Notes under the pieces: generated by a model | The model's input: only the letters and a program-made list of their open reading frames with translations | Database searches by the model: none | What the model was told of the DNA's origin: nothing | Translations under genes and position numbers: made by a program | Assembly: GCA_905221215.1 (NCBI GenBank) | Contig: CAJNCI010000014.1 | Coordinates: 1-35,665 of the forward strand | DNA length: 35,665 nucleotides | Direction of reading: 5' to 3' | From: a bacterium | GTDB lineage: Bacteria > Bacillota > Bacilli > Lactobacillales > Streptococcaceae | Part shown: positions 14,590 through 28,852 of the stretch, piece by piece | How the letters are laid out: each line of letters starts with the position of its first letter | Numbering within the stretch: position 1 is the stretch's first letter

Positions 14590-16566
14590 TTATTTCAAGT
14601 CTTGAACGACTTTTACAAGATTTTCTACAGTAAAGCCATATTCTGCCAATACTTTTGGTGCTGGGGCAGAGGCTCCGAAGGTATCAATACCTAGAACGGC
14701 ACCATCAAGACCAACATATTTGTACCAGTTTTGAGTTGCACCCATTTCGACTGCAACACGACGGCGGACTGCATTTGGAAGAATTTCTTCCTTGTATGCT
14801 GCATCTTGTTTATCAAAGACATCTGTAGATGGCATGCTGACTACGCGGATTTTTTCACCTTGACTAGCCAATTCTTTGGCAGCTGAGACAGCAAGATTAA
14901 CCTCTGAACCTGTCGCAATCAAGATCGTATCAAAGTCTGCTGCATTTTCATAGACTACATAGGCACCTTTTGCAACCTTGTTAAAATCTGTTCCCTCTTC
15001 AACAGTCAAGTTTTGACGTGTCAAGACAAGGGCAGTTGGTGTTTTCTCACTTGTCACTGCAAGGTACCAAGCTGCTTGAGTTTCACGCGCATCTGCTGGG
15101 CGGAAAACATTTAGATTTGGCATAGCACGAAGACCTGCTAGGTGTTCAACTGGTTCGTGAGTTGGACCATCTTCCCCAACTGCGATTGAATCGTGAGTGA
15201 AAACATAAGTCACAGGAAGTCCTTGCAAGGCTGACAAACGAACAGCAGCCTTCACATAGTCAGAGAAGACAAAGAAAGTTCCACCGTATACACGAAGTCC
15301 ACCGTGAAGAGCCATCCCGTTCAAGATAGTCCCCATTGCAAATTCACGAACACCAAACTGAATGTTACGGTTCAAGCGATTGGCATCGTCTTGAAGTCCG
15401 TCAGTCTTGATATAAGTCATGTTTGAGTGAGCTAGGTCAGCTGATCCACCCAAGAAAGTTGGTAACTTAGCTGCCACAACATTCAAGGCATCTTGGCTTG
15501 AATTACGAGTTGCTTGAGAGAAGCCATTTTCTAAGGCTGGGAAGTCTGCTGGGGTCACTTCAACTGGATCACGTCCATCAATAATGGCTTCTACTTCTGC
15601 AGCCAATTCTGGATGAGCTTCTTTATAGTCAGCAACTAATTTTGTCCAAGCTTGATAAGCTGATGCGCCACGGTCTGCAACATTTTCTTTGAAATCAGCA
15701 TAAACTTGTTCTGGGATTTCAAACGGTTCATAACCCCAACCGAGAGCTTGACGAGTAGCTGCAGTTTCATCTGCTCCAAGAGGGGCACCGTGTACAGCAT
15801 TGGTTCCTTGTTTGTTTGGAGAACCGTATCCAATAACAGTCTTCACTTCAATCAAAGATGGTTTACCTGAAGCTTTAGCTGTTTCGATAGCAGCATGGAT
15901 AGCTTCTAAGTCTGTTCCATCTTCAACCAAGGCTGTGTGCCAACCGTAAGCATTGTAACGGTCACGAACACTTTCTGTAAAGGAATCCTTTGTCTCACCA
16001 TCCAAGTTGATGTCATTTGAATCATAAAGAACAACCAATTTGTCCAGTTTTTGCAAACCTGCGTATGAAGCCGCCTCGCTTGAGACACCTTCCATCAAAT
16101 CTCCGTCTCCACAGATAACATAAGTATAGTGGTCAAAGATATTGTAGCCTTCGCGGTTATATTTGGCTGCCAAGAAACGTTCTGCTTGAGCAAAACCAGT
16201 GGCAGTTGAGATTCCTTGTCCTAGAGGACCTGTCGTAGCATCAATCCCTGCTGTATGACCAAATTCTGGGTGACCAGGTGTTTTTGAACCCCATTGACGG
16301 AAGCTCTTAATTTCATCCATGCTGACATCTTCAAAGCCAGAGAGGTGAAGAAGGGCATACAGGAGCATTGAACCATGTCCTGCTGAAAGAATAAAGCGGT
16401 CGCGATTAATCCAGTTTGGTTGGGCTGGATTGATACGAAGTTGTTTTGTAAAGAGGCTGTAAGCCATCGGAGCTGCTCCCATAACCACACCTGGGTGACC
16501 TGAGTTGGCTTTGTTGATGGCGTCAATACCTAGGAAACGAATTGCATTAACAGATAGATTTGACAT
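14590..16566 (-). CDS. tkt: Transketolase
   Basis: Thiamine-diphosphate enzyme moving two-carbon units between xylulose 5-phosphate and aldose phosphates in the pentose phosphate pathway. The 658-residue protein shows the catalytic His24 in [10 protein letters not shown], the ThDP/Mg motif GDGDLMEG (153-160), and a pyrimidine-binding domain with [20 protein letters not shown]. It was called recP in pneumococcus. AGAAAGGAAA precedes the ATG. Upstream is the ulaG stub; in pneumococcus the ascorbate operon is upstream. The product of the neighbouring island (D-xylulose 5-phosphate) is a substrate of this enzyme. Confidence 0.96.
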
Positions 16567-16679: not shown

Positions 16680-16919
16680 TTAGAGCAAGTATTTAAATTG
16701 AATATTAGAGTCTTGTTCAAAACAATCATCAAAGCCACGTGGGTGGTGGTACTTAATTCTGTCCTTATCTTGCGGATAAGTGTACTTGCCACCAACTTCC
16801 CAGATAAATGGGTGGAATTGATATTGTAAGCATTCCTTACGCATTTTCCAAAGGGCAAGGATTTCGTCGGTTGAAGCCATAAAGTTAGACCAAATATCGT
16901 AGTGAACTGGTAAAATCAA
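16680..16919 (-). pseudogene. ulaG: 3' stub of L-ascorbate-6-phosphate lactonase (ulaG)
   Basis: The remaining 79 codons match the C-terminus of UlaG, the metallo-beta-lactamase-fold lactonase of ascorbate catabolism (PVHYDIWSNFMASTDEILAL, then HPRGFDDCF near the end). The full protein is about 355-363 residues, so more than three quarters is missing, including the metal-binding HxHxDH region. The frame opens only a few codons before, just after an upstream TGA, and the only start candidate is a TTG with no convincing ribosome site. The stub abuts the stop of the PRD regulator, marking a deletion or replacement breakpoint near 16919. Confidence 0.9.
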
Positions 16920-16920
16920 G

Positions 16921-18582
16921 CTAATTTCCAGTCAAAATCTGCTTTTCGATCAGATTTTCGATTTGGTACTGGAGTTCCTTGGCTTCTTCGCTATTGGTAA
17001 GATAATGCCCCAAGAGCCGCTCTAGCTCACTTCTGAAATCGCTGTGCTGACTGGCTATCAGGCGATACTTGATAAAGCTGTTGAGCTTGACCACGTCTTC
17101 ATAGTCAAAAATAGGATTGACCTGCACCAGCGGAAATCTACTGCTAAGCCCGTCGCCGGTCACAATCAGCAAATCCACTTCCAGCAGGTCTTCTACGCTC
17201 TTAAATTGCTCACTTGTAAAGACCGCGCGGATATAGTCATGCGGAAAATAATACTGGCACTGCTTGAGCAAGAGGCGCTGGACTGCCACCCCCTCATCGC
17301 AGACAATATAAATCTGCTTGACCTCCTTGGGCTCCGTCGCCTGCGGCTTCAAAGCACCACCTAGGTGCATAGCCAAGTACGCAATCTCGCCTCGCGTCAG
17401 CGAAATGAGCCAGGCCTCCTCTAAAATCCCCACGCTCTGCTCGGTATAGTGATAAAGCTCAGGATACTTTTGCAAAATGTGCCGCGTCAGCGGATTTTTG
17501 GACAAAATGCCATAAGTCTTGCGGAACAAAAGCGCCTTACAGTGGGTCATGAGATTGCGAATCAGATCGTCACGATTTTCCAGCTCATAGGGAGAATGTG
17601 CTTCAAAATCCCAGATGAAATTGTCAATGGCCAGTTGCAAATCCGCGAAATCTTCACTAGTTGCATGTAAATCCTGGTCTTTTCGATGAGAAAGCAATAA
17701 AACCGCAATCCAAGACAGCTCAATCTCATCCAAACGCAAGCCCAATTTTTCGTCCAGCAAAGTCTGAAGTTTCTTAGCCGTGCTGTATTCCACGCGCTTA
17801 CGAATAAGAGAAAACTCGCGGTACAAATCGTCCTTCTCCTGCTCGCTCAAGGTCATATTACGGTAGGACAGCAGCAGATAAGGCAGAACCTTGAGCATAA
17901 ACTCGATTTCATAGCGATTGATTTTCTTACCCAAGTCCTGCTCGATAAAATGCACCTGCTGGTTGAGAAAAATTTGTAATTCCTCGGACAGCAGCACATC
18001 TTCCTGCACAAACTGCTTGATTTTACTTCCCAAAATCCGCATAAAACCGCTATTGCCCTCAGAAAAAATCGTGGTCAACAGAGCATGAACGTACTGGACT
18101 TTATTGAGCGGGTGGCATTTGAGAACATAGCCCTGCGACTTGGTTGTAATGAGACTAATCTGGTACTGCTCGACCGTCAGCTGGCTACGAATGGTGTTAA
18201 GGTCGTTGAGCACTGTATTACGCGACACCTTGGTCAAATCCATGAGCTTTTCAATCGTCACGCGCTCTTTCAAGACGCAGATAAAGAGAATCATCAGCTG
18301 CATGCGCTCTTCCATACTCATGACATAGCTGTGAGCATCCACGCTTTCAAGCAAGGCTTCACAAGCCTCTCGTTGTTCCGCTGTCAAAACCAGTCCGACC
18401 CGCGGCTGGCTGACAATCTTGTCAACTCCTTGAGGCAAAGCGTCGTTTATTTTTTCTAAATGATAATAAATTTTGCGGCGCGATTGCCCTGTGGCACGAG
18501 AAATCGCCATAATTGTTTCAGGTTCTGTCAACTGCAAAAGATAGTTGAGCAAGACAGAGCTGCTTTTATTTAAATAAATCAT
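16921..18582 (-). CDS. PRD-containing transcriptional activator (BglG/MtlR type, UlaR-like)
   Basis: A 553-residue PTS-controlled regulator. Two N-terminal helix-turn-helix modules (about 10-60, MAISRATGQSRRKIYYHLEK; about 90-150, LMDLTKVSRNTVLNDLNTI), PRD1 (about 190-290), PRD2 (about 300-400) and an EIIB-like domain (about 405-490) starting IYIVCDEGVAVQRLL with a cysteine in the phosphorylation-loop position. I see no C-terminal EIIA domain. Such proteins are switched by HPr and EII phosphorylation. By position next to ulaG this is the ula regulator slot, but it may now serve the sugar island. Codon usage is visibly richer in G+C than tkt. AAGGAAAG precedes the ATG. Confidence 0.88.
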   Translation of the reverse strand: MIYLNKSSSVLLNYLLQLTEPETIMAISRATGQSRRKIYYHLEKINDALPQGVDKIVSQPRVGLVLTAEQREACEALLESVDAHSYVMSMEERMQLMILFICVLKERVTIEKLMDLTKVSRNTVLNDLNTIRSQLTVEQYQISLITTKSQGYVLKCHPLNKVQYVHALLTTIFSEGNSGFMRILGSKIKQFVQEDVLLSEELQIFLNQQVHFIEQDLGKKINRYEIEFMLKVLPYLLLSYRNMTLSEQEKDDLYREFSLIRKRVEYSTAKKLQTLLDEKLGLRLDEIELSWIAVLLLSHRKDQDLHATSEDFADLQLAIDNFIWDFEAHSPYELENRDDLIRNLMTHCKALLFRKTYGILSKNPLTRHILQKYPELYHYTEQSVGILEEAWLISLTRGEIAYLAMHLGGALKPQATEPKEVKQIYIVCDEGVAVQRLLLKQCQYYFPHDYIRAVFTSEQFKSVEDLLEVDLLIVTGDGLSSRFPLVQVNPIFDYEDVVKLNSFIKYRLIASQHSDFRSELERLLGHYLTNSEEAKELQYQIENLIEKQILTGN

Positions 18583-18693
18583 TTGCTTTTCTTTCCTTTA
18601 AACTTCCTTTCTAGGATATCGCAACCGCTTATAAAATTGAAAGATGAAGGATTTTTCAGCTACTTGGAAAGTCTTATTTCCCACTCCCTTGCA

Positions 18694-18702
18694 TGTTATA
18701 AT
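18694..18702 (+). promoter_or_regulatory. Extended -10 before the acetyltransferase remnant
   Basis: TGTTATAAT on the plus strand, 22 bases before the ATG at 18724; no strong -35. The remnant therefore still has a plausible promoter, in the 141-base region shared with the divergent PRD regulator. Confidence 0.55.
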
Positions 18703-18723
18703 AAAAGAAAAAATCTGCTCCCC

Positions 18724-18951
18724 ATGAATCTTAAAGAACAACAGCAGCATATTCTTTCGGGTGCCATGTACAATGACTTGACTCCCGAGTTGGTCAAAGC
18801 ACGCGAAAAAACGGTCTTTCTGACCAACTGCTACAATGCCAGTTTTGGACAGCCTGCTAAGGACATCCCAGCTAATGTTGTGGCGACTGGCGTTCCTTGC
18901 CACGTCATTCGACTAATCACTGACCAAGACAAAATCAATTATCAGCCATAA
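18724..18951 (+). pseudogene. Internally deleted maltose/galactoside O-acetyltransferase
   Basis: 75 codons: the first 45 (MNLKEQQQHILSGAMYNDLT to NASFGQPA) match the N-terminal cap of the Maa/LacA family, and the last 30 (KDIPANVVATGVPCHVIR onward) match its C-terminal end. The left-handed beta-helix of hexapeptide repeats between them, about 110 residues with the active site, is missing. The two parts are joined in frame near 18858, so no stop or frameshift is present. It cannot be an active acetyltransferase. The family acetylates sugars with acetyl-CoA. An upstream ATG at 18583 would add 47 unrelated residues. Confidence 0.85.
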
Positions 18952-18985
18952 AACTGAAGTAGGTTCACCTACCTCAGTTTTCTTT
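18951..18985. terminator. Bidirectional terminator between the remnant and the isomerase gene
   Basis: Arms 18951-18964 (AAACTGAAGTAGGT) and 18967-18980 pair with one mismatch. The plus-strand tail is TCTTTTT. The minus-strand isomerase stop codon (18974-18976) lies inside the stem. Confidence 0.8.
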
Positions 18986-19723
18986 TTCCAGCAGCCGCGC
19001 GATGTCTGCTTCTAAGTTTTCCAAGGAAGTCGGATATTCTAGGGCAAGATAGCGTACATGGCTAAAGCGCTTCATGAGGCTAGGAGCATCTAACTCACCT
19101 TCAAATAAACTAGCAATCTCCACTTGACCATTTACATGACGGTAATTTTTGCAATGGAGGTAATCGGTAACTTCTGCCAAGCTAGCAAAAGCCTGCTCTA
19201 TATCTTCTCCAATCCAAGCCCAGTTGCCAAGGTCAAAAACGAAAGCAATAGGCAGGTCTGCTGCGCTGACCTTGTTCATCATCAAACGGCAATTCTTGAT
19301 ACTGGCATAAAGAGGGTCTTGGTTATTTTCCAGCTTAAGTCCGACAGATGATTGAAAACTAGGCGCCAACTCTGCCAAAGAAGCTACTGAAATCTGACTG
19401 GCATCACCCGTGTTTAATTTGATAAAGGGAGCGCCCAAGAGCTCTGCTTCCTGTCGCAAAGTCTTAAGTTTCGGATTGACCCTATCTCCTATGACAAAAT
19501 CCTCATTGACACTGTAAAAGAGCGACAGCCCTAGCAGGTCAGCTTTTTTTCTGATGTTTTTTAACTCTATATCAATATCCCTTAAAAACTCTCGCCGAAT
19601 TTCAACCCTTGAAATCCCCAGATTTTTGACGCTTTCTAGCAAATCTTCTTGCTTGACTCCCCTGTCTAATTCTTCCTTAAAAGCAATCGTGTTGATAATC
19701 AATTCTTCTCGCTTTATTTTCAT
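18974..19723 (-). CDS. Sugar phosphate isomerase/epimerase (AP-endonuclease-2 TIM-barrel family)
   Basis: A 249-residue single-domain TIM barrel of the xylose-isomerase-like superfamily (IolE, IolH, UlaE type). Family-like segments are GISRVEIRREFLRDI, APFIKLNTGD, VGLKLENNQD (a metal-ligand glutamate in this superfamily), FVFDLGNWAWIG, HCKNYR and the C-terminal LALEYPTS. It is only distantly similar to UlaE and is shorter. It may interconvert ketoses or their phosphates for the adjacent kinase; the exact reaction is unknown. It starts nine bases after the kinase stop (GAGG upstream) and is the last gene of the operon. Confidence 0.75.
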   Translation of the reverse strand: MKIKREELIINTIAFKEELDRGVKQEDLLESVKNLGISRVEIRREFLRDIDIELKNIRKKADLLGLSLFYSVNEDFVIGDRVNPKLKTLRQEAELLGAPFIKLNTGDASQISVASLAELAPSFQSSVGLKLENNQDPLYASIKNCRLMMNKVSAADLPIAFVFDLGNWAWIGEDIEQAFASLAEVTDYLHCKNYRHVNGQVEIASLFEGELDAPSLMKRFSHVRYLALEYPTSLENLEADIARLLEKEN

Positions 19724-19732
19724 CCCAATCCT

Positions 19733-21256
19733 CTATTCTAATGTCGTCCGTAGCTGACAAAGCTCTGCCCAAGCAGGCTCCATGGCTGCAAGCAAACTTT
19801 GGTAAACGCGATATTTCCTTTGATAAATCTCATGTTCCTTAGCCTGAGGCTCAAAGCGCTCCTTGACCCGAACCATTTTTTCGACAGCTTCTTCTAGGCT
19901 CAAATCTTCCACCGCTTGCAAGCAAGCAATGGCACCACCCAGACCACCCAATTCTGACGCTTCAACCGTCTCTACTGGGATATTTAAAATATCAGCGAAC
20001 ATCTGCATCCAAGATGGCGAATTTGTCGCACCGCCTGACAAGCGCAAAGCGCGCGGTCTTTGCTCAATCGTCGCTAGCAAATCATCGATATGCTGCTTGT
20101 GCGCATAGACAATCCCCTCATAAACCGCCCGAATCATCTCTGACTTGCTGGACTGGGTTGTCAGACCAAAGAAGCAAGCCTCAGCAGCTCTGCTGATATT
20201 GCTGCCATAAAGAAAAGGGAAAAAGAGAATCTTGCTGTAAGAAGCGTCCGTCTCCTGCAAAAACACTTCCAGTACATCGTAAATAGAGGAATTCGAAGCC
20301 TTGAGATTTTGGATTTCCTCCATCATCAGCATTTTTATCATAGCATCCAAATTTCCCGCCGAAGTTGGACTGCCTGCCTCTATCAAAAAATCGCGATTGG
20401 GAAAATAAGAGTGCATCAAGCCGCTATCTTGGCTGACTGCCGTCTTGCTGGGATAAGTATTGATATTCCAAGTGCCTGAAATCACGCTAAAAGTGCTGGC
20501 GTCTAGGACCCCAGAGCCGATTGCGCAAGCATCAATATCAAAGAGCCCACCAATCACAGGCGTTCCTGCAAGAAGTCCCGTTGCTGCGGCAGCTTCTTGG
20601 GTCAAGCCACCAACAAGCTCTGCATAGTCCACTTGGGGCGCCAAAAGCTCGTATATTTCTTCAATACCAAAGAAAGTCGTAATTCTTTTGTCGTAAGTGC
20701 CCGTCTGGAAGTTAATCCAGTGATTTCCTGAAGCATCTCCCATCTCTTGCTGAATACACCCAGTCAGCTTGAAGCGGACATAGTCCTTGGCCGACAGAAT
20801 TGCCCCAATATTCTGGTAAATCTCTGGTTCATATTCTTTGAGCCAGCGAAGCAAAACGGGATTTTGCACGGCAACAACATGCTGGTGCGTCAAGTCCCAG
20901 ATTTCGTCTAGCCGCTCCTCAAATTCTTGAGCCAGCTCGACCGCTCGCTCATCTGTAGACAAGATACCGCGCGTAAATTCCTGACCGTTTTTATCCAGCA
21001 GATAGAGGCCTTTCCCATGACCAATACAGGCAAGAGCGCTGATGTCTTCTGCCTTAAGCTGGGCATTTTTGACAGCTTGCCTCATAGCCTGACAAATCCC
21101 CTGCCAGGTCTCTTTCAAATCCACTTCGCGATAGCCTGCTTTTTCCTCAATCTTCTTGGTACTAAAAGCAGACTGCCCTAATTGTCGCCCTTCTTCATCA
21201 AATACGATTGCCTTGGTATTAGTGCCCCCATAATCGATACTTAAAAAATATTTCAT
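19733..21256 (-). CDS. FGGY-family carbohydrate kinase (L-xylulose kinase-like)
   Basis: A 507-residue sugar kinase of the FGGY/ASKHA fold: phosphate-1 loop SIDYGGTNTKAIVFDEEG at 6-23, catalytic-base region GLFDIDACAIGSGVL, phosphate-2 ISGTWNIN and adenosine motif LRLSGGATNSPSW. Family members phosphorylate ketoses and polyols. Because UlaE and UlaF, which need L-xylulose or L-ribulose 5-phosphate, are encoded nearby and UlaD is absent, L-xylulose is the most likely substrate (compare E. coli LyxK/YiaP). That assignment is inference from context and general similarity. GGAGGAG precedes the ATG. Confidence 0.82.
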   Translation of the reverse strand: MKYFLSIDYGGTNTKAIVFDEEGRQLGQSAFSTKKIEEKAGYREVDLKETWQGICQAMRQAVKNAQLKAEDISALACIGHGKGLYLLDKNGQEFTRGILSTDERAVELAQEFEERLDEIWDLTHQHVVAVQNPVLLRWLKEYEPEIYQNIGAILSAKDYVRFKLTGCIQQEMGDASGNHWINFQTGTYDKRITTFFGIEEIYELLAPQVDYAELVGGLTQEAAAATGLLAGTPVIGGLFDIDACAIGSGVLDASTFSVISGTWNINTYPSKTAVSQDSGLMHSYFPNRDFLIEAGSPTSAGNLDAMIKMLMMEEIQNLKASNSSIYDVLEVFLQETDASYSKILFFPFLYGSNISRAAEACFFGLTTQSSKSEMIRAVYEGIVYAHKQHIDDLLATIEQRPRALRLSGGATNSPSWMQMFADILNIPVETVEASELGGLGGAIACLQAVEDLSLEEAVEKMVRVKERFEPQAKEHEIYQRKYRVYQSLLAAMEPAWAELCQLRTTLE

Positions 21257-21280
21257 TTTTCTCCTCCGATTTCAAGTACA

Positions 21281-21311
21281 AAAGAAGCTGAGATTGCCTC
21301 ACAGCTTCTTT
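21281..21311 (-). terminator. Intra-operon hairpin between amidohydrolase and kinase
   Basis: AAGAAGCTG-type arms (21281-21292 and 21298-21311) form a long stem with one bulge, followed on the minus strand by UUUUGU. It may attenuate transcription of the last two genes or protect the upstream mRNA; it is not a strong terminator by tail. Confidence 0.55.
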
Positions 21312-21331
21312 ATGAACAAGCACATGCGGAT

Positions 21332-22321
21332 TTAATACAAGCCTAATTCCTTAGTCGCTGCATCAACCGCTTCACGGTTTGCTTGAACAGCCGACGGCTT
21401 AAAGTAAACGCGCTCTGCATTATTGTAGAGGACATCTTCTAGCTCTTCTGGCGTGAAAATATCCACGTGCTCCAGCCAAGTTGCCAACTCTTCATAAGTG
21501 TTAAAAGTAGCTGACCAAGGCGAATCTGTGCCCCAGATGATGCGCTTCGCTCCCAGCACTTCCTTAGCAATCCGAACATTCTTTTCAGATTTAGGGAATG
21601 GGAAAGTATCTGGACGGTCAATATCTTGGATAGCAGAAATATCTGTGTAAACATTTGGTAAATCTTTCCACATGCTGAGTTCCGCCCGCAGACGATTTGG
21701 TGTATCCGCATGTGGGAATGACAAATGGCAGACAACAAAGTCAAGGCTTGGATGCAAACGAGCAAGATTGGCAATAGCATCCGGCTGGTGGCTGATTTGG
21801 TCAAAGTTGCCATAGTCCACAGTGATAACGAAGCCTGGATAATCCAGCAAGTAGCTCAAAATCAAGCTGACATGCGGGTCACTGTCCAAGCGGAAAGGCG
21901 TTTTTTGTCCACGATAGCCGTGGATACCACCACCTTGGCTGATTTCAAATTTGAGTGCTCTAAAGCCCAGCTCTTCTACATGACGGCGAACAATCTGCAT
22001 GGCATTTTCAGCAAATGGATCCACCGAAAATGCGCCTGTAAAGCGGTCTGGGTAGCGCTTAATCGCCAGATGAGTATAGTAGTTTTGATAGCCATTCAAG
22101 TGGCCTTGCAAAATCACCGCTTTCTCAATATCATTGGCATCCATGTACTTCAAGAAAGCCTCTGCTGTAAAGTCCTTGTCGCCATAGCCGTCTGGAATAA
22201 GCTTAATCAATTCACCGTCGTCCCAAATGGCATAGCCATTGCCCAGAGCATTCAGTCTGCCCTTGCCATTAAAACCAGCAATAGTATTTAAAATATGTGC
22301 ATGTCCGTCAATTTTCTTCAT
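21332..22321 (-). CDS. Amidohydrolase family 2 enzyme (lactonase/decarboxylase-type TIM barrel)
   Basis: A 329-residue amidohydrolase-2 protein. Metal-site motifs are DGHAHIL (HxH near residues 5-7), the central CHLSFPHAD and the C-terminal GTDSPWSATF aspartate. This family includes sugar lactonases such as fuconolactonase-like enzymes, and decarboxylases. Placed with a 2-hydroxyacid dehydrogenase and a sugar kinase, hydrolysis of an aldonolactone is my favoured reading; the substrate is not shown by the sequence. ATG at 22321 follows GGAGG by eight bases; an in-frame ATG at 22342 would add seven residues. It lies 33 bases after the EIIC gene. Confidence 0.8.
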   Translation of the reverse strand: MKKIDGHAHILNTIAGFNGKGRLNALGNGYAIWDDGELIKLIPDGYGDKDFTAEAFLKYMDANDIEKAVILQGHLNGYQNYYTHLAIKRYPDRFTGAFSVDPFAENAMQIVRRHVEELGFRALKFEISQGGGIHGYRGQKTPFRLDSDPHVSLILSYLLDYPGFVITVDYGNFDQISHQPDAIANLARLHPSLDFVVCHLSFPHADTPNRLRAELSMWKDLPNVYTDISAIQDIDRPDTFPFPKSEKNVRIAKEVLGAKRIIWGTDSPWSATFNTYEELATWLEHVDIFTPEELEDVLYNNAERVYFKPSAVQANREAVDAATKELGLY

Positions 22322-22354
22322 GATACAGTCCTCCAAATTCAAATCTGTTATTCA

Positions 22355-23806
22355 TTAGCCTTCGCTAATCATAATCTTTTCTTTACTTCCTTCAAAACCA
22401 CTATTTTTATCTGCCATTTTCCGCAAATAAGCGTAGATAGACTCGCGTTTTGTCCGTAGGAAGAAAAGAGATACTAGGTAAACAGCAATCGTCACGCCAA
22501 TCCAAAGCGGATTGCCCGAAATCCAAGCAAAGAAGACGAGAGCCGTCAAAGGGTGAGCCAAAAGATTGAAACTCATAATCAAGACCACTCCAGCTGGCAA
22601 GACCGATCCATATTGTTGCACAGCTTCCGTATAAATTGGACCGAGGGCGCTGGCCGCATAAAGTCCCAGTGAAAACCAAACTATTCCGTTTAGAATCGCC
22701 TTGAGGATATTTCCTTTTGATACGGCAATCATAGCTTCAATCATAAAGGGAATAGCAATCAAGTCAACGACTGGAAGCGCGCGGTTGCCAGGCAAAATCA
22801 AGGAAACCAAGACCATGATTGGTACCAGAATGAGCCCCGCAATGATAGTGGCAGGTTCACCAAAACCAACTCCGTCATCCACTGCGATAAACCAGCGTTT
22901 CTTGTCTGCCAGTCCGTCTTCTTCTTCGCTTTCTTTTTTCTTGTTCTTTTCGACCGCTTCAGCCAGAGGTCCGAAAGCGCTTGCAAATACGCCTGTAATC
23001 AAGGGGAAAATGGTCATAACGGCTGCAAGTGACATGGCAAAACCTAGAATGCCACCCCAGGCTTCCAAACTCGCCAGATTTTTCAAGCTACCGAGAATCC
23101 CGATAATCATCCCCAGCAAGAAACCGAGAGTCATGGGTTCTCCGAAAATTCCCAGCTTGGTTTTCAGCGATTCTGGATTGAGTTTGACCTTGTTGATACC
23201 GATAAGGTTCCACAGCGGATCCAATACTAAGGCTGGAATCAAGGTTTCGATATTGTGAATAGAGTTGATTGTTGCATTTTTGACTCTGTAGTATTCTGAC
23301 CAGCGCTCTGCTACCACTTCTGACATAATCAGTGAGTAAAGAAGGACAAAGACCATGAAAGCAAAGGAGAGGATAAAGTTTCCTGTTGCCGCATAAGCCA
23401 TGGTTCCCCAAATCATGTAACCGAAGTTATTCCAGAGATTGGACGGTACAAAGACCCGCGTGATCCCAAAAAGGAAAAGAAGCAACTCAATCAGTAGACC
23501 AAAAACGAAGAAGGACAGACCGATTGAAGAAGAGAAGGCAGTTAGAGAACCCGTTTGCCAACCGATGTCAACGATAGGCAAATTGAGCCCCGCCGTGTCA
23601 ACCATTTGCTGGATGTACTTGGTTACCAGCGGTGTAAAAGCAGAGATGACCCAGCCAAATCCTGTCAAACCAACCCCCGCGCGCAGGGCACTGAAAAAAG
23701 CGCGCTTGGGACTGACTTTCAAGAACAGACTAACAATAAAAATCATTACTGGCACAACGATTGCTGCACCAAAAACATCGAAAAATTTTTGTAAGGCTTC
23801 TAGCAT
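22355..23806 (-). CDS. PTS EIIC membrane subunit, galactitol family, without EIIA/EIIB
   Basis: A 483-residue, highly hydrophobic protein with about ten to twelve membrane segments, related to the galactitol (Gat/Sgc) class of PTS EIIC: MLEALQKFFDVFGAAIVVPV at the start, VAERWSEYYR, NSIHNIETLIPALV, and FAWISGNPLWIGV near the end. A charged cytoplasmic loop (NKKKESEEEDGLADKK) lies mid-protein. EIIC forms the transport path and normally needs its own EIIB to phosphorylate the sugar. No EIIA or EIIB gene lies in this window, and there is no fused domain. AAAGGG precedes the ATG. Confidence 0.85.
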   Translation of the reverse strand: MLEALQKFFDVFGAAIVVPVMIFIVSLFLKVSPKRAFFSALRAGVGLTGFGWVISAFTPLVTKYIQQMVDTAGLNLPIVDIGWQTGSLTAFSSSIGLSFFVFGLLIELLLFLFGITRVFVPSNLWNNFGYMIWGTMAYAATGNFILSFAFMVFVLLYSLIMSEVVAERWSEYYRVKNATINSIHNIETLIPALVLDPLWNLIGINKVKLNPESLKTKLGIFGEPMTLGFLLGMIIGILGSLKNLASLEAWGGILGFAMSLAAVMTIFPLITGVFASAFGPLAEAVEKNKKKESEEEDGLADKKRWFIAVDDGVGFGEPATIIAGLILVPIMVLVSLILPGNRALPVVDLIAIPFMIEAMIAVSKGNILKAILNGIVWFSLGLYAASALGPIYTEAVQQYGSVLPAGVVLIMSFNLLAHPLTALVFFAWISGNPLWIGVTIAVYLVSLFFLRTKRESIYAYLRKMADKNSGFEGSKEKIMISEG

Positions 23807-23829
23807 AGTTTTACCCTTTTTCCTTTATT

Positions 23830-24786
23830 TTATTTGTTTACGACATTGACAGGGTTCCCTTCGAAGAAGGAAAGAATATTCGTGGCAGCTTCTGCTGCCA
23901 AGGTACGGCGACCTTCAATCGTTCCCGTTCCTGCATGCGGCGCCATGATAACATTGTCCAAAGCGCGAAGCTCTTCAGAAACTTCTGGCTCAAACTCAAA
24001 GACATCCAAACCAGCTCCTGCTATCTCTCCAGTTTTAAGCGCTTCAATCAAGTCTTCTTCAGACACAATCGGACCACGCGCTGCATTGATTAGATAGCTT
24101 CTGTTCTTCATTTTCTTGAACACTTCTTTGTTAAATTTGTGATGAGTGGACGGTAGAGACGGAGCATGAATGGTAATGACATCAGCCTTCTCAACCAAAT
24201 CATCAAATTCCACATAGCTAACGCCCAATTCTTTTTCCCTCTCCTCTGGCAATCGATAGAGGTCGTGATAGAGCACTTTCATCCCAAAAGCCTTGGCGAA
24301 GCCAGCTACAGTTGAACCAATACGCCCCATACCATAGATACCAAGCGTTGCGCCCTCAAGTGTCAGCCCTTGATAGCGTCTTTCGCTCGGGTCAATCCAG
24401 TTTCCTGTACGGACAATCTTGTCATAAAAGGCTAAACGTTTGGTAGCGGCTAAGAGAAGGGCAAAAGTCATTTCAGCTGTCGGTACCCGCACAGCTTGCG
24501 GCGAATTGGAGACTACAATCCCTTTTTGTTTGGCGTATTCGATGTCCACATGGTCAAAACCAACCGCATTAAGAGAGATGATTTGCAAGTTTTTCCCCGC
24601 ATCGATCATTTCCTTGTCCCCTTTTTGCCCCATTAAAAGCCAAGCGTCGTACTCAGGCAAGTGTTCCAGCACATAGTCGCGTGAAAACGGCTCCCCGTCT
24701 GAGTAGGTCACATCGTACTTTTCCATTAGCTTGACCAAGCCTTCCTTAGGAACAATTCCCGTCACAAGAACTTTCTTCTTAGGCAT
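23830..24786 (-). CDS. D-isomer-specific 2-hydroxyacid dehydrogenase
   Basis: A 318-residue NAD(P)-dependent dehydrogenase interconverting 2-keto acids and D-2-hydroxy acids (glyoxylate/hydroxypyruvate/2-ketogluconate reductase type). The nucleotide-binding motif is GIYGMGRIGSTVAGFAKAFG, followed by the signature INAARGPIVSEEDLIEAL and the catalytic His in APHAGTGT. The ATG at 24786 is preceded by GGAGG; a longer in-frame start (24909) would run through the preceding gene. The start overlaps the end of the beta-propeller gene by eight bases, so the two are translationally coupled. In the island it probably reduces a keto sugar acid; substrate unknown. Confidence 0.88.
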   Translation of the reverse strand: MPKKKVLVTGIVPKEGLVKLMEKYDVTYSDGEPFSRDYVLEHLPEYDAWLLMGQKGDKEMIDAGKNLQIISLNAVGFDHVDIEYAKQKGIVVSNSPQAVRVPTAEMTFALLLAATKRLAFYDKIVRTGNWIDPSERRYQGLTLEGATLGIYGMGRIGSTVAGFAKAFGMKVLYHDLYRLPEEREKELGVSYVEFDDLVEKADVITIHAPSLPSTHHKFNKEVFKKMKNRSYLINAARGPIVSEEDLIEALKTGEIAGAGLDVFEFEPEVSEELRALDNVIMAPHAGTGTIEGRRTLAAEAATNILSFFEGNPVNVVNK

Positions 24787-25810
24787 TCTTTTCCTCCTTT
24801 TGTAGTTCGTAAAGAGCAACTGTATTTTTTCCATTATTCGCCGAAAAGATATAGGATTTCCCAGCTTTTTCAAAAGCCAAACAGTTGCTAGAAGCAACTT
24901 CTGGAGCAATCATGTGTTCCAGAAAACGTCCATTTTCATAGGTAAAAGCAAGTAAGTGCTTCTTCCCTGAGCGCCAGCCAAAGATAAAGGTTGGCTGACC
25001 AAGTAAAGTCCCCGACCAGATGGCGTGCCCAAAAGGCGTCGCTTCTGGATAGGCAAATAATTCCTCCTTAAAATCTTCTGATAAAATTCGCAAGCTATCG
25101 CCATGGAAAGCCTGGATAATCATATTTTCCAGACGACCATCACCGTTCATGTCCAACTGTACAATATCGCTCGTTTCTTCATCAAAGAGCTGGGTCAAAG
25201 TCCAGTCAGACGTACCCTGCGGATAGCCCAAACGATAAATCCCTTCCACCGCTGTGATAAGCGAGTAATGCTCTGCGTGAACAGGATAGTAACCGTGATT
25301 TTTCTTGAGTCGAAGTGGCAATTCTTCTACATTTGTCAGCTGCCTTACCTGTTTATCAAAATGACCGACAAAAATTTTCCCGTCATCCGACCAGTCCTCG
25401 ACAAACTGTTTGGAATTGGCAATCGTACAACCGATAAAAAGAATAGCTCCACGCTCATTGTCAACTAAATCAAAGCGATGCAGATAAGGAAAAGCCCCCA
25501 CTTCCGTGATTGTCCACTTGCCCTCGCCCTCGAACTGTCCGTGAACAATCCGGCAATCCTTGGCATCAAAACCGGGATAAAAGCGCTGGGTTGCCAAGAA
25601 ATCCAGCGTCCCTGGCACTTGGATAATGGACATGGTGCCACCAACCTCGCTCCAAAGCACCGTCCTTGCGAAATCGCGATTGACATCATAGGCCAAGCAG
25701 GCATTTTCGGTCTCCGAAGCCACCAAAAGATAGTCGTTAGCGCTATCGGTCAACCTTGCAACGGCATAGCAGGCATCCAAGTGGTCGCTTAATATTGTTT
25801 TACTATTCAC
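24779..25810 (-). CDS. Cytosolic beta-propeller-like protein of unknown function
   Basis: 343 residues with no signal peptide or membrane segment. The sequence is beta-rich with loosely repeated blades, such as YLLVASETENACLAYDVNRD, GAILFIGCTIANSKQF, QPTFIFGWRSGKKHLLAF and SYIFSANNGKNTVALYEL. One blade carries an FG-GAP/VCBS-like calcium motif DMNGDGRLENM. I do not recognise a named family. As first gene of the six-gene operon, coupled to the dehydrogenase, it may be a lactonase, mutarotase-like or structural partner acting on the same sugar. GTG start at 25810, five bases after AGGAG. Confidence 0.7.
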   Translation of the reverse strand: MNSKTILSDHLDACYAVARLTDSANDYLLVASETENACLAYDVNRDFARTVLWSEVGGTMSIIQVPGTLDFLATQRFYPGFDAKDCRIVHGQFEGEGKWTITEVGAFPYLHRFDLVDNERGAILFIGCTIANSKQFVEDWSDDGKIFVGHFDKQVRQLTNVEELPLRLKKNHGYYPVHAEHYSLITAVEGIYRLGYPQGTSDWTLTQLFDEETSDIVQLDMNGDGRLENMIIQAFHGDSLRILSEDFKEELFAYPEATPFGHAIWSGTLLGQPTFIFGWRSGKKHLLAFTYENGRFLEHMIAPEVASSNCLAFEKAGKSYIFSANNGKNTVALYELQKEEKNA

Positions 25811-25870
25811 TAGGTCTCCTTTCTAGACGAGCAATCAACCTTTCACTGCAAAATTATTTTCAAACCCCAA

Positions 25871-25884
25871 GTGAAGCGGTTAAC
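25871..25884. promoter_or_regulatory. LacI-type operator (distal)
   Basis: GTGAAGCGGTTAAC, the same sequence pattern (GTGAARCGRTTAAC) as the inverted copy at 25945-25958. It lies in the 5' untranslated region of the six-gene operon. Probable binding site of the divergently placed island LacI protein; inference. Confidence 0.65.
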
Positions 25885-25944
25885 TTATTTTCAAAAAATA
25901 AAAGTGAACTACGTTTCTCTTATAAAATAATGCTTCAATTCATG

Positions 25945-25958
25945 GTTAATCGTTTCAC
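25945..25958. promoter_or_regulatory. LacI-type operator (proximal, at the transcription start)
   Basis: GTTAATCGTTTCAC, which on the minus strand reads GTGAAACGATTAAC. It lies just after the expected +1 (about 25966). Its centre is 74 bases from that of the distal copy, about seven helical turns, which suits repression by looping. Confidence 0.7.
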
Positions 25959-25972
25959 CTTTCTACTATTAC

Positions 25973-26010
25973 AGTATACACTATCTTCTTCAAAATTGCA
26001 AGCGATTTCA
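25973..26010 (-). promoter_or_regulatory. Promoter of the six-gene sugar operon with overlapping cre site
   Basis: -35 TTGCAA (complement of 25996-26001), 17-base spacer, -10 TATACT (complement of 25973-25978). At 25997-26010 TGCAAGCGATTTCA is a perfect match to the cre pattern TGNAANCGNWWNCA and overlaps the -35, so CcpA should repress in glucose. Confidence 0.8.
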
Positions 26011-26022
26011 AAAAAATATTTT

Positions 26023-26051
26023 AAAAAAAGTATCCACTCGCGCGAATACTT
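26023..26051 (-). terminator. lacI terminator
   Basis: AAGTAT (26028-26033) and ATACTT (26046-26051) with CG-rich pairing inside, followed on the minus strand by seven U. Confidence 0.8.
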
Positions 26052-26056
26052 CATTT

Positions 26057-27040
26057 CTAAAAAGAGCTTCTAAGAACTGTAAAGCTAGGAACGACAAGGA
26101 GTTGAGCAGGTTCCGCCGCTAGCTCTCCTCTTAATTTTTTGATTAGATGTTCTGCTGCCACTTGACCAATTTTATAAGAATCTTGACGAATACAGGACAC
26201 ATTCGGATTTAAAACCTCCATCCATTCCAAATCCTCGTAGGAACCCAGACCAAAATCACGAGGATAGCTGTAGTCGGTCTTGTTCAAGATTTTCATAAAA
26301 TCAAGCAGGGCTGGGCCGTTCATGGTGAAAAAAGCGATTTTTTCTTGCCTTTGCTCAATCAACTGAAGAATTTTTTGAGCTGTCCCGTCTTGTCCCAAAA
26401 CCAAAAGTTTCTCTGGGGCAGCCGAAACCTCTTCTTTAAAGCCCTGATAACGCATTTCCCGCGTCGAAATCCCCTCAATCGGAAAGGTGACAAAGTAAAT
26501 GTCTTCATAGCCTGCCTTCTTCATTTCTGCCAGAAAAGCCTTGGTCGAGTCACGATTATTAGATACAACCGTGTCCAGCGTCACTTCTCTCGATTGCCTG
26601 TCCACTAGAACTGTCCGCTTCTTACTCAGCTTGTGAATCAGGGGCGAATTGGCATCCACTGTATCGAGAATAATCCCTGATACATTCTGCTGCTGAAGCC
26701 GCTCGATATTTTCCTGCTCAATCAGCTGGTCATTGTCTGAATTGGTAAAGTTAACCGTGTAGTCGTATTTCTTGCAAGTGTCATGAATTCCTTTGATAAC
26801 TGAGGAAATGAAGGGATTGGTGATATCCGCAATCACAACGCCAATCGTCTTGGTGTCTCTGGTCACCAAACTTTGCGCCATTTTGTTAGGTTGATAACCA
26901 GTTTCTTCAATGGCCAGCCGGATTTTCTCCCTCGTCTCCAAAGACATTTTCCGCATATTTCCATTTAAGTAATAAGAAATCGTCGCCTTGGACACCCCAA
27001 CAAAGCTAGCAATATCATTGATTGTTACTTTTTTTGTCAT
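26057..27040 (-). CDS. LacI-family transcriptional repressor of the sugar island
   Basis: A 327-residue regulator. N-terminal LacI helix-turn-helix VTINDIASFVGVSKATISYY with hinge helix QPNKMAQSL (about 1-62), then a periplasmic-binding-protein-like effector domain (TIGVVIADITNPFISSVIKG onward). Effector is probably the island substrate or an intermediate; inference. It sits between the ulaE-ulaF unit and the six-gene operon, has its own promoter and terminator, and two matching LacI-type operators lie just downstream at the operon it most likely controls. Confidence 0.9.
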   Translation of the reverse strand: MTKKVTINDIASFVGVSKATISYYLNGNMRKMSLETREKIRLAIEETGYQPNKMAQSLVTRDTKTIGVVIADITNPFISSVIKGIHDTCKKYDYTVNFTNSDNDQLIEQENIERLQQQNVSGIILDTVDANSPLIHKLSKKRTVLVDRQSREVTLDTVVSNNRDSTKAFLAEMKKAGYEDIYFVTFPIEGISTREMRYQGFKEEVSAAPEKLLVLGQDGTAQKILQLIEQRQEKIAFFTMNGPALLDFMKILNKTDYSYPRDFGLGSYEDLEWMEVLNPNVSCIRQDSYKIGQVAAEHLIKKLRGELAAEPAQLLVVPSFTVLRSSF

Positions 27041-27071
27041 TTTGTTCTTTCTAACTCATCAAATTGCATTT

Positions 27072-27077
27072 ATTATA
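27072..27077 (-). promoter_or_regulatory. -10 element of lacI
   Basis: Perfect TATAAT on the minus strand, 31 bases before the ATG. The -35 at 17 bases is poor (TGGCAT). Confidence 0.5.
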
Positions 27078-27113
27078 TCACTTTAAAAATCAAGATGCCA
27101 CTTAAAACCAACA

Positions 27114-27138
27114 CAAAAAAGCAATCTCTGGGACTGCT
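27114..27138 (-). terminator. Terminator of the ulaE-ulaF unit
   Basis: AGCAGTC and GATTGCT pair over seven positions (one G-U) with a five-base loop; six U follow on the minus strand. Confidence 0.75.
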
Positions 27139-27147
27139 CTTTGTTTT

Positions 27148-27858
27148 TTAATGGCTAGCGCCTTTTTGCCCATAGTAAGCGTTCGGTCCGTGTTTGCGGA
27201 GGTAGTGCTTATCCATGAGGTATTTTGGTGCTTCTTTGACATCGGGGTTGATTTGCTCGGTGAAGCGCGCCATTTTGGCCACTTCTTCCAAGACAACGCT
27301 GTGGTAAACCGCAGCTTCTGGCGTCTTGCCCCAAGTGAAGGGACCGTGGTTGCGCACAGTGACACCTGGCACTGCCATTGGGTCAATCTGACGTTCGCGG
27401 AAGGTTTCAATAATCACGGTGCCTGTTTCTTTTTCGTAGGCCGTGTTGATTTCGCTTTCTGTCAATGAACGTGCCGCTGGAATGGGACCGAAGAAATAAT
27501 CTGCATGCGTCGTTCCGTAAAATGGAATATCGCGCCCAGCCTGTGCCCAGCCAACCGCTTCCGTTGAGTGCGTGTGAACAACGCCACCGACTTTTGGGAA
27601 AGCCTTGTAGAGCTCCACGTGGGTAGGCAAGTCAGATGACGGATTGAGGTCGCCTTCAACGATATTGCCGTCCAAGTCGGTCACAACCATATTTTCCGGA
27701 CTAAGCTTATCGTAGTCCACACCGCTCGGTTTGATGACAATCAAGCCCGCTTCGCGGTCCACCGCAGAGACATTTCCCCAAGTAAACTTAACCAAGCCAT
27801 GTTTTGGCAAGTCACAATTAGCCTTGTAAACGCGCTCTCTTAATTCTGGTAACAGCAT
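27148..27858 (-). CDS. ulaF: L-ribulose-5-phosphate 4-epimerase (UlaF/AraD family)
   Basis: Converts L-ribulose 5-phosphate to D-xylulose 5-phosphate. The 236-residue class II aldolase/epimerase has the family motifs GNVSAVD (29-35), KPSGVDYD, SSDLPTHVELYKAFP, the zinc-binding HTHSTEAVGWAQAGRDIP and GTTHADYFFG, and RNHGPFTWG. Its start overlaps the ulaE stop by one base (ATG/TAA type coupling). Its product feeds the adjacent transketolase. UlaF and AraD cannot be told apart by sequence alone; pairing with ulaE favours UlaF. Confidence 0.92.
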   Translation of the reverse strand: MLLPELRERVYKANCDLPKHGLVKFTWGNVSAVDREAGLIVIKPSGVDYDKLSPENMVVTDLDGNIVEGDLNPSSDLPTHVELYKAFPKVGGVVHTHSTEAVGWAQAGRDIPFYGTTHADYFFGPIPAARSLTESEINTAYEKETGTVIIETFRERQIDPMAVPGVTVRNHGPFTWGKTPEAAVYHSVVLEEVAKMARFTEQINPDVKEAPKYLMDKHYLRKHGPNAYYGQKGASH

Positions 27859-28721
27859 TAGTTTAACCCCGCTTTCTCAATGAGTGGATAAAGGAAATCT
27901 TGAGCTTCTTTGATAGCCGCCTTGGTTTCCTCTACTGTTGGACAATTTTCAGACCACATTTCAATCAAAAACGGCCCTTGATAATTGGTTTCTTTTAAAA
28001 TTCTGAAAGTATCTTCCCAGTTGACACAACCTTGACCAAAAGGCACATCGCGGAATTGCCCCTTGGACTGCTCAGTCACAGGATAGGTATCCTTGAGATG
28101 CAGAGCTGCCAGGGCCTGGTGCCCGATAACAAACTCACTATAGAGGTCATTGTGCCAAGCTGAGAGATTACCTGTGTCTGGATAGACAAAGAGATAAGGC
28201 GAGTTGATAGCCTTTTCAACAGCCAAGTATTTTTCGATACTATTGATAAATGGGTCATCCATAATCTCAATCGCAAGAATAACCTGCGCTTGCTCCGCCC
28301 AATTACAAGCCTTGCGTAGATTTTTGAGGAAGCGAGCTCGTGTTTCTGGCGATTTTTCCTCATAGTAGACATCATAGCCCGCCAGCTGAATGACCCGCAC
28401 ACCCAAATCCTGCGCCAACTCGATACATTGCTTCATGATTTCCAGCGACTTGGCTTCTAGGGCTGGATCGTTTGACCCTAGCGGATAGCGGCGGTGCCCA
28501 GAAAAGCAGATAGTCGGAATGCGGACACCCGTTTCATAAACAGCCTTGACCACTTCAAAGCGTTCTTCCTTACTCCATTCCAAGCGCGCTAAGCGAGCAT
28601 CGCTTTCATCAACCGACATTTCAACAAAGTCAAAGCCCAGCTCCTTGGCAAACTCCAAGCGTTCTTTCCAAGTGAAGTGCTTGGGCGTCGCCTTTTCGTA
28701 AATTCCAATCGGACGTGTCAT
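27858..28721 (-). CDS. ulaE: L-ribulose-5-phosphate 3-epimerase (UlaE/SgbU family)
   Basis: Converts L-xylulose 5-phosphate to L-ribulose 5-phosphate. The 287-residue TIM-barrel enzyme begins MTRPIGIYEKATPKHFTWKE and has the family segments DFVEMSVDESD, ICFSGHRRYPLGS, the metal-ligand region AIEIMDDPFINSIEKY, VYPDTGNLSAWHND, LHLKDTYP and FLIEMWSEN. It is first in the ulaE-ulaF unit. UlaD, which would supply L-xylulose 5-phosphate from 3-keto-gulonate 6-phosphate, is absent, so the FGGY kinase in the island is the likely source. Confidence 0.93.
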   Translation of the reverse strand: MTRPIGIYEKATPKHFTWKERLEFAKELGFDFVEMSVDESDARLARLEWSKEERFEVVKAVYETGVRIPTICFSGHRRYPLGSNDPALEAKSLEIMKQCIELAQDLGVRVIQLAGYDVYYEEKSPETRARFLKNLRKACNWAEQAQVILAIEIMDDPFINSIEKYLAVEKAINSPYLFVYPDTGNLSAWHNDLYSEFVIGHQALAALHLKDTYPVTEQSKGQFRDVPFGQGCVNWEDTFRILKETNYQGPFLIEMWSENCPTVEETKAAIKEAQDFLYPLIEKAGLN

Positions 28722-28768
28722 AGCCTACCCCCAAATTCGACGGATTTCGTCTTTAATTGTTCTCCTAT

Positions 28769-28793
28769 ATTATATAATGTGAAAGCGGAAACA
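28769..28793 (-). promoter_or_regulatory. ulaE-ulaF promoter with perfect cre site
   Basis: Perfect -10 TATAAT (complement of 28769-28774) with a poor -35. TGAAAGCGGAAACA (28780-28793) fits the cre pattern TGNAANCGNWWNCA completely and lies between -10 and -35, so CcpA should repress. Confidence 0.7.
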
Positions 28794-28832
28794 AAAAGAC
28801 CAAGAATTACACAGCGGACTGTTCACTCTTGG
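28793..28832 (-). terminator. Terminator of the HI_0552-like gene
   Basis: CCAAGA (28800-28805) and TCTTGG (28827-28832) with an inner ACAG/CTGT stem, followed on the minus strand by UCUUUUUG. It marks the end of the core genes and the start of the island. Confidence 0.8.
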
Positions 28833-28852
28833 ACTGTATGATTTATGATATT

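What the first reader, a model, noticed from the sequence alone, without database searches (positions are those of the whole stretch)
16680..28790. A composite sugar-acid catabolic island has replaced the ascorbate (ula) operon
UlaE and UlaF-type epimerases, which need L-xylulose 5-phosphate, are present but UlaA, UlaB, UlaC and UlaD are not. An FGGY kinase, an amidohydrolase, a 2-hydroxyacid dehydrogenase, a TIM-barrel isomerase and an orphan galactitol-type EIIC are present instead, with a LacI and a PRD regulator. The combination implies entry at L-xylulose via the kinase and a lactone or keto-acid precursor upstream, ending in transketolase, which is the next gene. I do not know a described pathway with exactly this gene set.
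Basis: partly seen in the sequence, partly recalled or inferred. Interest (0 to 1): 0.78.

Follow-up and report, generated by a model that had tools for sequence, protein, structure and literature searches.

The report
Ascorbate-locus module with new predicted decarboxylase
In a Streptococcus genome the vitamin C (ascorbate) gene cluster has lost its front half but kept an added block of sugar-acid genes, and one overlooked gene in that block is predicted to be an unrelated stand-in for the decarboxylase that the known pathway uses, which would be a new enzyme family if tests confirm it.

Summary
The gene content is real, but "replacement of ula" is wrong. In S. sanguinis SK49, S. agalactiae and others the module LacI-propeller-dehydrogenase-EIIC-amidohydrolase-kinase-TIM lies inside a complete ula locus. 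Here ulaABC and nearly all of ulaD are gone: DNA from upstream of ulaA is followed directly by the last nine ulaD codons and ulaE, and a 79-residue ulaG tail remains. Its model is a beta-propeller closest to aldos-2-ulose dehydratase. Its relatives sit in ascorbate operons of Trichococcus and three other Bacillota genera, beside ulaE/ulaF, where no UlaD was found in operon or genome. Of 127 Lactobacillales genomes with UlaG, all nine without UlaD carry this family, against 7 of 118 with UlaD. [quoted passage not shown] The module then reads as a yia-like route from 2,3-diketo-L-gulonate or dehydroascorbate to L-xylulose 5-phosphate: the kinase groups with E. coli LyxK, and YiaL plus an MFS transporter share its predicted LacI operator in lactobacilli. 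Substrate, kinase order and catalysis are inferred. The pathway is a variant of a known kind; the decarboxylase family would be new.

The parts
27858..28721 (-). UlaE-type L-xylulose/L-ribulose-5-phosphate 3-epimerase, now first gene behind the old ulaA upstream region
   Evidence: NCBIfam PRK13210 495 bits; 52-53% to E. coli SgbU/UlaE
27148..27858 (-). UlaF-type L-ribulose-5-phosphate 4-epimerase
   Evidence: NCBIfam PRK13145 479 bits; 55-57% to SgbE/UlaF
28725..28754 (-). Remnant: last 9 codons and stop of ulaD
   Evidence: translation ends KDEIRRIWG*, SK49 ulaD ends KDEIKRIWG; blastn to L014 3588-3743
28768..28837 (-). Remnant of the region upstream of ulaA (likely its promoter)
   Evidence: 88.6% over 70 bp to SK49 L014 376-445, upstream of ulaA
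26057..27040 (-). LacI-family regulator
   Evidence: Pfam LacI and Peripla_BP
25945..25958 (.). Predicted LacI operator 1
   Evidence: GTKAANCGNTTMAC, 2 in window, 0 in 100 shuffles; the motif was read off these loci
25871..25884 (.). Predicted LacI operator 2
   Evidence: same motif 55 times in 23 of 24 module loci
25997..26010 (-). cre-like site TGAAATCGCTTGCA (cre consensus recalled, not tested)
   Evidence: sequence printed
24779..25810 (-). [quoted passage not shown]
23830..24786 (-). D-2-hydroxyacid dehydrogenase, predicted 2-keto reductase
   Evidence: Pfam 2-Hacid_dh_C; start chosen by 318-aa orthologues and ATG; 32% to GhrB
22355..23806 (-). EIIC-GAT permease without EIIA/EIIB partners in the window
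   Evidence: Pfam PF03611 216.7 bits; TIGR00827 below cut-off
21332..22321 (-). Amidohydro_2 protein, predicted lactonase
19733..21256 (-). FGGY kinase, LyxK-like
   Evidence: 33% full length to E. coli LyxK; tree sister of LyxK 98/93
18974..19723 (-). TIM-barrel protein of the PA2260 family (KguE by recall), predicted keto-acid isomerase or epimerase
   Evidence: 1yx1 E 1.8e-29 with the family profile
16921..18582 (-). PRD (BglG-type) regulator of the old ula locus
   Evidence: Pfam PRD
16680..16919 (-). Remnant: last 79 residues of ulaG and stop
   Evidence: aligns to SK49 UlaG 285-363 of 363
14590..16566 (-). Transketolase next to the locus
   Evidence: tkt relatives in 10 of the loci L013-L059, 7 of them Streptococcus module loci

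Best explanation
A Streptococcus ascorbate (ula) locus carries an added sugar-acid module, keeps only remnants of ulaD and ulaG beside an intact ulaE and ulaF, and likely makes L-xylulose 5-phosphate with a predicted keto-acid reductase, a LyxK-like kinase and an overlooked beta-propeller protein that is predicted to be the decarboxylase in place of UlaD. Proposed order, all inferred: a dehydroascorbate-like lactone or 2,3-diketo-L-gulonate enters unphosphorylated through the partnerless EIIC; the amidohydrolase opens the lactone; the TIM-barrel protein handles a cyclic or isomeric form; the 2-hydroxyacid dehydrogenase reduces 2,3-diketo-L-gulonate to 3-keto-L-gulonate; the FGGY kinase phosphorylates it (or L-xylulose after decarboxylation); the propeller protein removes CO2, giving L-xylulose 5-phosphate; UlaE and UlaF convert it to D-xylulose 5-phosphate, which transketolase uses. 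Shown here: gene content, remnants, synteny, operator motif, phyletic exclusivity, predicted folds. Not shown: any substrate or activity.
For: (1) History: SK49, agalactiae, pseudoporcinus, catagoni and others carry the module inside complete ula loci; the window keeps DNA from upstream of ulaA, the ulaD end and the ulaG end. (2) UlaE in 16 of 16 and UlaF in 16 of 16 module genomes, true UlaD in 10 of 16. (3) Propeller family in ascorbate operons without ulaD: Trichococcus ulaG-C-A-B-F-E-tkt-propeller (L098); G526 and G834 G-C-A-B-E-propeller-F, G617 and G811 other orders; no UlaD in G425, G617 and G811, only matches weaker than 1e-5 in G526 and G834; none at 1e-30 in the other Trichococcus genomes. 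(4) Of 127 Lactobacillales genomes with UlaG, 9 lack UlaD and all 9 have the family; 7 of 118 with UlaD have it. (5) Co-decay: three genomes of the Trichococcus genus without UlaG and UlaE keep only a 60-position fragment of it. (6) yia correspondence: L106 has LacI, dehydrogenase, propeller, LyxK-like kinase, UlaE, UlaF and YiaL-MFS-YiaL; L122 has propeller, UlaE, UlaF, FGGY, MFS and a YiaL 52% identical to E. coli's; neither genome has the amidohydrolase. (7) LacI operator motif: 55 sites in 23 of 24 loci, 53 near the start of a propeller, TIM, YiaL, dehydrogenase or UlaE gene. (8) Window genes have dN/dS 0.02-0.31 against SK49 (11 genes) and LQJ-218 (13 genes).
Against: Seven streptococcal loci (L014, L016, L017, L019, L021, L022, L023) keep both UlaD and the propeller gene, so they may not be redundant: the module's propeller might act on the unphosphorylated acid or do something else. 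A third branch (L102-L104) has a propeller relative (25-27%) with dehydrogenase, EIIABC, a TIM barrel, galactonate dehydratase and KDPG aldolase, where this decarboxylation does not obviously fit (families checked for L102). The fold relative AUDH is a dehydratase. The eight UlaG-positive, UlaD-negative genomes other than G001 are one genus, so the Fisher p of 5e-9 is not for independent events; in one of them (G492) the propeller gene lies in two frames. G664 has the gene near ulaG but no UlaE at 1e-30, and G111 has it outside any recognised context. S. sciuri (L020) holds only 77 of 249 residues of the TIM protein. The ascorbate-derived substrate is inferred from context only. Long branches weaken the kinase tree.
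Confidence: 0.6

Rival explanations
1. Kinase after decarboxylation: the propeller (or the amidohydrolase) makes free L-xylulose from unphosphorylated 3-keto-L-gulonate and the FGGY enzyme is a true L-xylulose kinase.
For: FGGY groups with E. coli LyxK; the propeller gene is directly followed by the kinase gene in 10 of 23 loci; UlaD is kept beside the propeller in seven loci, as if substrates differ.
Against: In PTS ascorbate operons the family would meet the 6-phosphate; for E. coli a paper says the kinase phosphorylates 3-keto-L-gulonate (PMC6958661 passage).
Confidence: 0.35
2. The module degrades another acid, for example an aldonolactone or 2-keto-L-gulonate: lactonase, C2 dehydrogenase, TIM isomerase turning a 2-keto into a 3-keto acid, then decarboxylation and kinase.
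For: TIM protein is of the PA2260/KguE family, and kguE is needed for 2-ketogluconate use (PMC11678583 passages); a probable 2-ketogluconate reductase is fifth among the dehydrogenase's PDB relatives, behind glyoxylate reductases and a phosphoglycerate dehydrogenase; amidohydrolase resembles lactonases.
Against: The genomes of L106 and L122 have no amidohydrolase and the L106 stretch has no TIM protein, so the core works without them; amidohydrolase with dehydrogenase lies beside ascorbate operons in L033 and L041.
Confidence: 0.3
3. The propeller protein is a dehydratase, anomerase or other helper and CO2 is lost spontaneously or by an unknown enzyme.
For: Fold closest to a dehydratase; the galactonate-type operons L102-L104.
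Against: In the UlaD-less ascorbate operons of four genera it is the one enzyme-like gene without an assigned step and it decays together with UlaG/UlaE.
Confidence: 0.25
4. A foreign island replaced the ula operon in one step.
For: No UlaA-D in the window; module DNA is much more alike between window and SK49 (dS 0.05-0.08) than UlaE (0.57) or tkt (1.83), so it has moved between species.
Against: DNA from upstream of ulaA, the ulaD end and the ulaG end are in their old places, and the module lies inside complete ula loci elsewhere.
Confidence: 0.04

Closest known systems
E. coli yiaKLMNO-lyxK-sgbHUE operon (2,3-diketo-L-gulonate)
   Same: LyxK-like kinase, SgbU/SgbE homologues; YiaL and an MFS transporter accompany the core in some lactobacilli
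   Different: No YiaK or SgbH homologue among the 14 window proteins compared; a 2-hydroxyacid dehydrogenase and a beta-propeller protein stand there; EIIC instead of TRAP; extra amidohydrolase and TIM protein; LacI instead of the IclR-family YiaJ/PlaR
ulaABCDEFG L-ascorbate PTS operon
   Same: UlaE, UlaF, PRD regulator, locus next to transketolase
   Different: ulaABC gone, ulaD and ulaG remnants only, module added
Pseudomonas kgu operon (2-ketogluconate)
   Same: LacI regulator, TIM protein of the PA2260 family (KguE by recall), a keto-acid reductase
   Different: FGGY kinase; exit through UlaE/UlaF; KguK and KguD sequences were not compared
Aldos-2-ulose dehydratase (4a7k)
   Different: About 11% identity; the entry is 879 residues, this protein only 343; bacterial operon gene
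UlaD/SgbH (OMP-decarboxylase-like, fold recalled)
   Same: Place in the pathway and operon
   Different: Beta-propeller model and no sequence match

Membership tests
ula L-ascorbate PTS operon | UlaABC transporter | tested here: not met
   absent from window; upstream region and ulaD end remain
ula L-ascorbate PTS operon | UlaG lactonase intact | tested here: not met
   79-residue tail only
ula L-ascorbate PTS operon | UlaD decarboxylase | tested here: not met
   nine codons left in window; none in nearest genome G001
ula L-ascorbate PTS operon | UlaE and UlaF | tested here: met
yia-sgb operon | LyxK kinase | tested here: met
   33% full length, sister in tree 98/93, long branches flagged
yia-sgb operon | YiaK reductase | tested here: not met
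   no blastp match at 1e-3; unrelated dehydrogenase instead
yia-sgb operon | SgbH decarboxylase | tested here: not met
   no match at 1e-3
yia-sgb operon | YiaL | tested here: not met
   not among the window proteins; present in L027, L029, L031, L051, L106, L122
yia-sgb operon | growth on 2,3-diketo-L-gulonate | not testable with these tools
   needs culture
AUDH beta-propeller family | propeller fold | tested here: met
AUDH beta-propeller family | sequence model PF22301 | tested here: inconclusive
   1 of 31 members at E 0.0053
AUDH beta-propeller family | dehydratase activity | not testable with these tools
   needs assay
UlaD family | homology of the propeller protein to UlaD | tested here: not met
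   no blastp match to E. coli UlaD at E 1 or SgbH at 1e-3; beta-propeller model
kgu operon | KguE-family TIM protein | tested here: met
   1yx1 (PA2260) E 1.8e-29; name KguE recalled
kgu operon | KguK kinase and KguD reductase | not tested
   no KguK or KguD sequence was compared
COG3618/Amidohydro_2 lactonases | fold and active-site pattern | tested here: inconclusive

The most novel reading that the evidence does not exclude
The 343-residue protein founds a family of beta-propeller decarboxylases that replaced UlaD/SgbH in ascorbate and diketogulonate pathways across Bacillota: a second, unrelated protein fold for 3-keto-L-gulonate(-6-phosphate) decarboxylation and a new reaction for beta-propellers.
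Probability: 0.6. Interest if true: 0.8.

Novelty: new variant of a known kind. Interest (0 to 1): 0.7.

Why it matters
It assigns a testable role to a protein family that Pfam and NCBIfam do not name, would explain how Trichococcus and other Bacillota with an ascorbate PTS can do without UlaD, and gives a natural experiment: a lineage that lost ulaABCD and ulaG but kept ulaE, ulaF and the module. If right, ascorbate degradation has two unrelated decarboxylases, and annotation that requires UlaD misses users of ascorbate or its oxidation products.

Tried and rejected
Tried without result: a phmmer search of PDB with the amidohydrolase and profile searches with propeller and amidohydrolase gave no clear sequence relative (best 0.062 and 0.0018). 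E. coli Hyi and OtnI as relatives of the TIM protein: no match. Foldseek alone ranked human LGI1 (an EPTP propeller) first for the propeller model; VIA-align, which only re-ranks Foldseek's hits, put aldos-2-ulose dehydratase first. Papers: searches returned none and two unrelated ones; some gave background only. Listings were seen for all; passages of PMC11678583, PMC3219644 (section 9 in full), PMC8141875 and PMC6958661. No supplement was read.

Considered and dropped: an L-lyxose or D-apiose route (the dehydrogenase and the UlaD-less ascorbate operons do not fit); 1,5-anhydrofructose chemistry as in AUDH (operon context is ascorbate); the amidohydrolase as sole decarboxylase (absent from the genomes of L106 and L122, and it stands beside an intact ulaD in L033, L041, L048 and L050). 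UlaD search: 121 of 395 genomes passed 1e-30; I dropped G172 (1.4e-34, far below the next) before the count. The UlaG count of 127 includes G001, whose copy has stops. The 24 genomes with the propeller family include three with a 60-position fragment only.


Full report
Observation. The ten-gene block 16921-28721 lies on the minus strand between transketolase and a 211-aa gene next to jag. Pfam and NCBIfam confirm PRD, FGGY, Amidohydro_2, EIIC-GAT, 2-hydroxyacid dehydrogenase, LacI, UlaF and UlaE. A tenth protein, 24779-25810, has no hit in either library and was not in the finding. The dehydrogenase most likely starts at the ATG ending at 24786, giving 318 residues as in many orthologues.

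Related loci. One scan of GTDB genomes with the amidohydrolase gave 46 loci in Streptococcus and Lactobacillaceae. In S. sanguinis SK49, S. catagoni, S. pseudoporcinus, S. agalactiae, S. saliviloxodontae and S. loxodontisalivarius the module lies downstream of ulaABCDEF and upstream of ulaG (ula names checked against E. coli). The window's nearest held relative, Streptococcus sp. LQJ-218 (L015, G001), also lacks ulaABCD at this place, has no UlaD in its genome and has a broken ulaG. In the window, DNA from upstream of ulaA, then the last nine ulaD codons, then ulaE follow one another, and the last 79 residues of ulaG lie between PRD and tkt. So ula genes were lost from a composite locus; they were not swapped.

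What the module needs. In 16 module genomes searched whole, UlaE is in 16 and UlaF in 16 (in one, L054, as fragments), but a true UlaD (E below 1e-60) only in 10; the other six have none or only 23-25% relatives. Completeness of these 16 assemblies is not told by the tool, and some lactobacillar UlaF matches may be arabinose-pathway relatives. UlaE follows the kinase gene directly in 8 of the 9 Lactobacillaceae loci where that side is held. The product is therefore most likely L-xylulose 5-phosphate. The kinase is 33% identical to E. coli LyxK over its length and its clade is LyxK's sister among eight E. coli FGGY kinases (98/93; the tool warns of long branches).

Results against. Seven streptococcal loci keep ulaD and the propeller gene together. 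The propeller branch in L102-L104 sits in another sugar-acid PTS operon, in L102 with galactonate dehydratase and KDPG aldolase. G111 has the gene outside any recognised context, G664 lacks UlaE at the cut-off, and G492 has it in two frames. S. sciuri keeps only part of the TIM gene. The phosphorylation state of the propeller's substrate in this module is open.

Literature. [quoted passage not shown] I could not test whether that is this family. Searches (open-access library) found no description of this module or of a second decarboxylase.

Noticed in passing
window 16921-27858: UlaF through PRD differ from SK49 by dS 0.05-0.08 while UlaE (0.57) and tkt (1.83) differ far more: the module has recently recombined between Streptococcus species.
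   Followed up: partly
window 18583-18951: A plus-strand 122-aa ORF is a shortened maltose-acetyltransferase-like gene (Pfam Mac); SK49 has a 243-aa version at the same place.
   Followed up: partly
L102 3895-10944, also L103, L104: Another sugar-acid PTS operon with dehydrogenase, propeller relative, TIM barrel, EIIABC and, in L102, galactonate dehydratase and KDPG aldolase.
   Followed up: partly
L028, L034, L036, L038, L049; L042, L045, L046; L055, L056: The amidohydrolase also occurs without the rest of the module in Fructobacillus and Limosilactobacillus/Lactobacillus loci, and beside tkt in L055 and L056; its role there is unknown.
   Followed up: no
L033, L041, L044: Amidohydrolase-dehydrogenase pair; in L033 and L041 it is next to ula genes, which hints at handling of an oxidised ascorbate form.
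   Followed up: no
L013 (Levilactobacillus brevis plasmid pBRV276): LacI, TIM, EIIC and amidohydrolase lie on a plasmid, so part of the module is mobile.
   Followed up: partly
L014 15813-16610: SK49 carries a CAAX-protease-like (Rce1-like) gene downstream of PRD, LQJ-218 a shorter relative; the window has no room for it.
   Followed up: no
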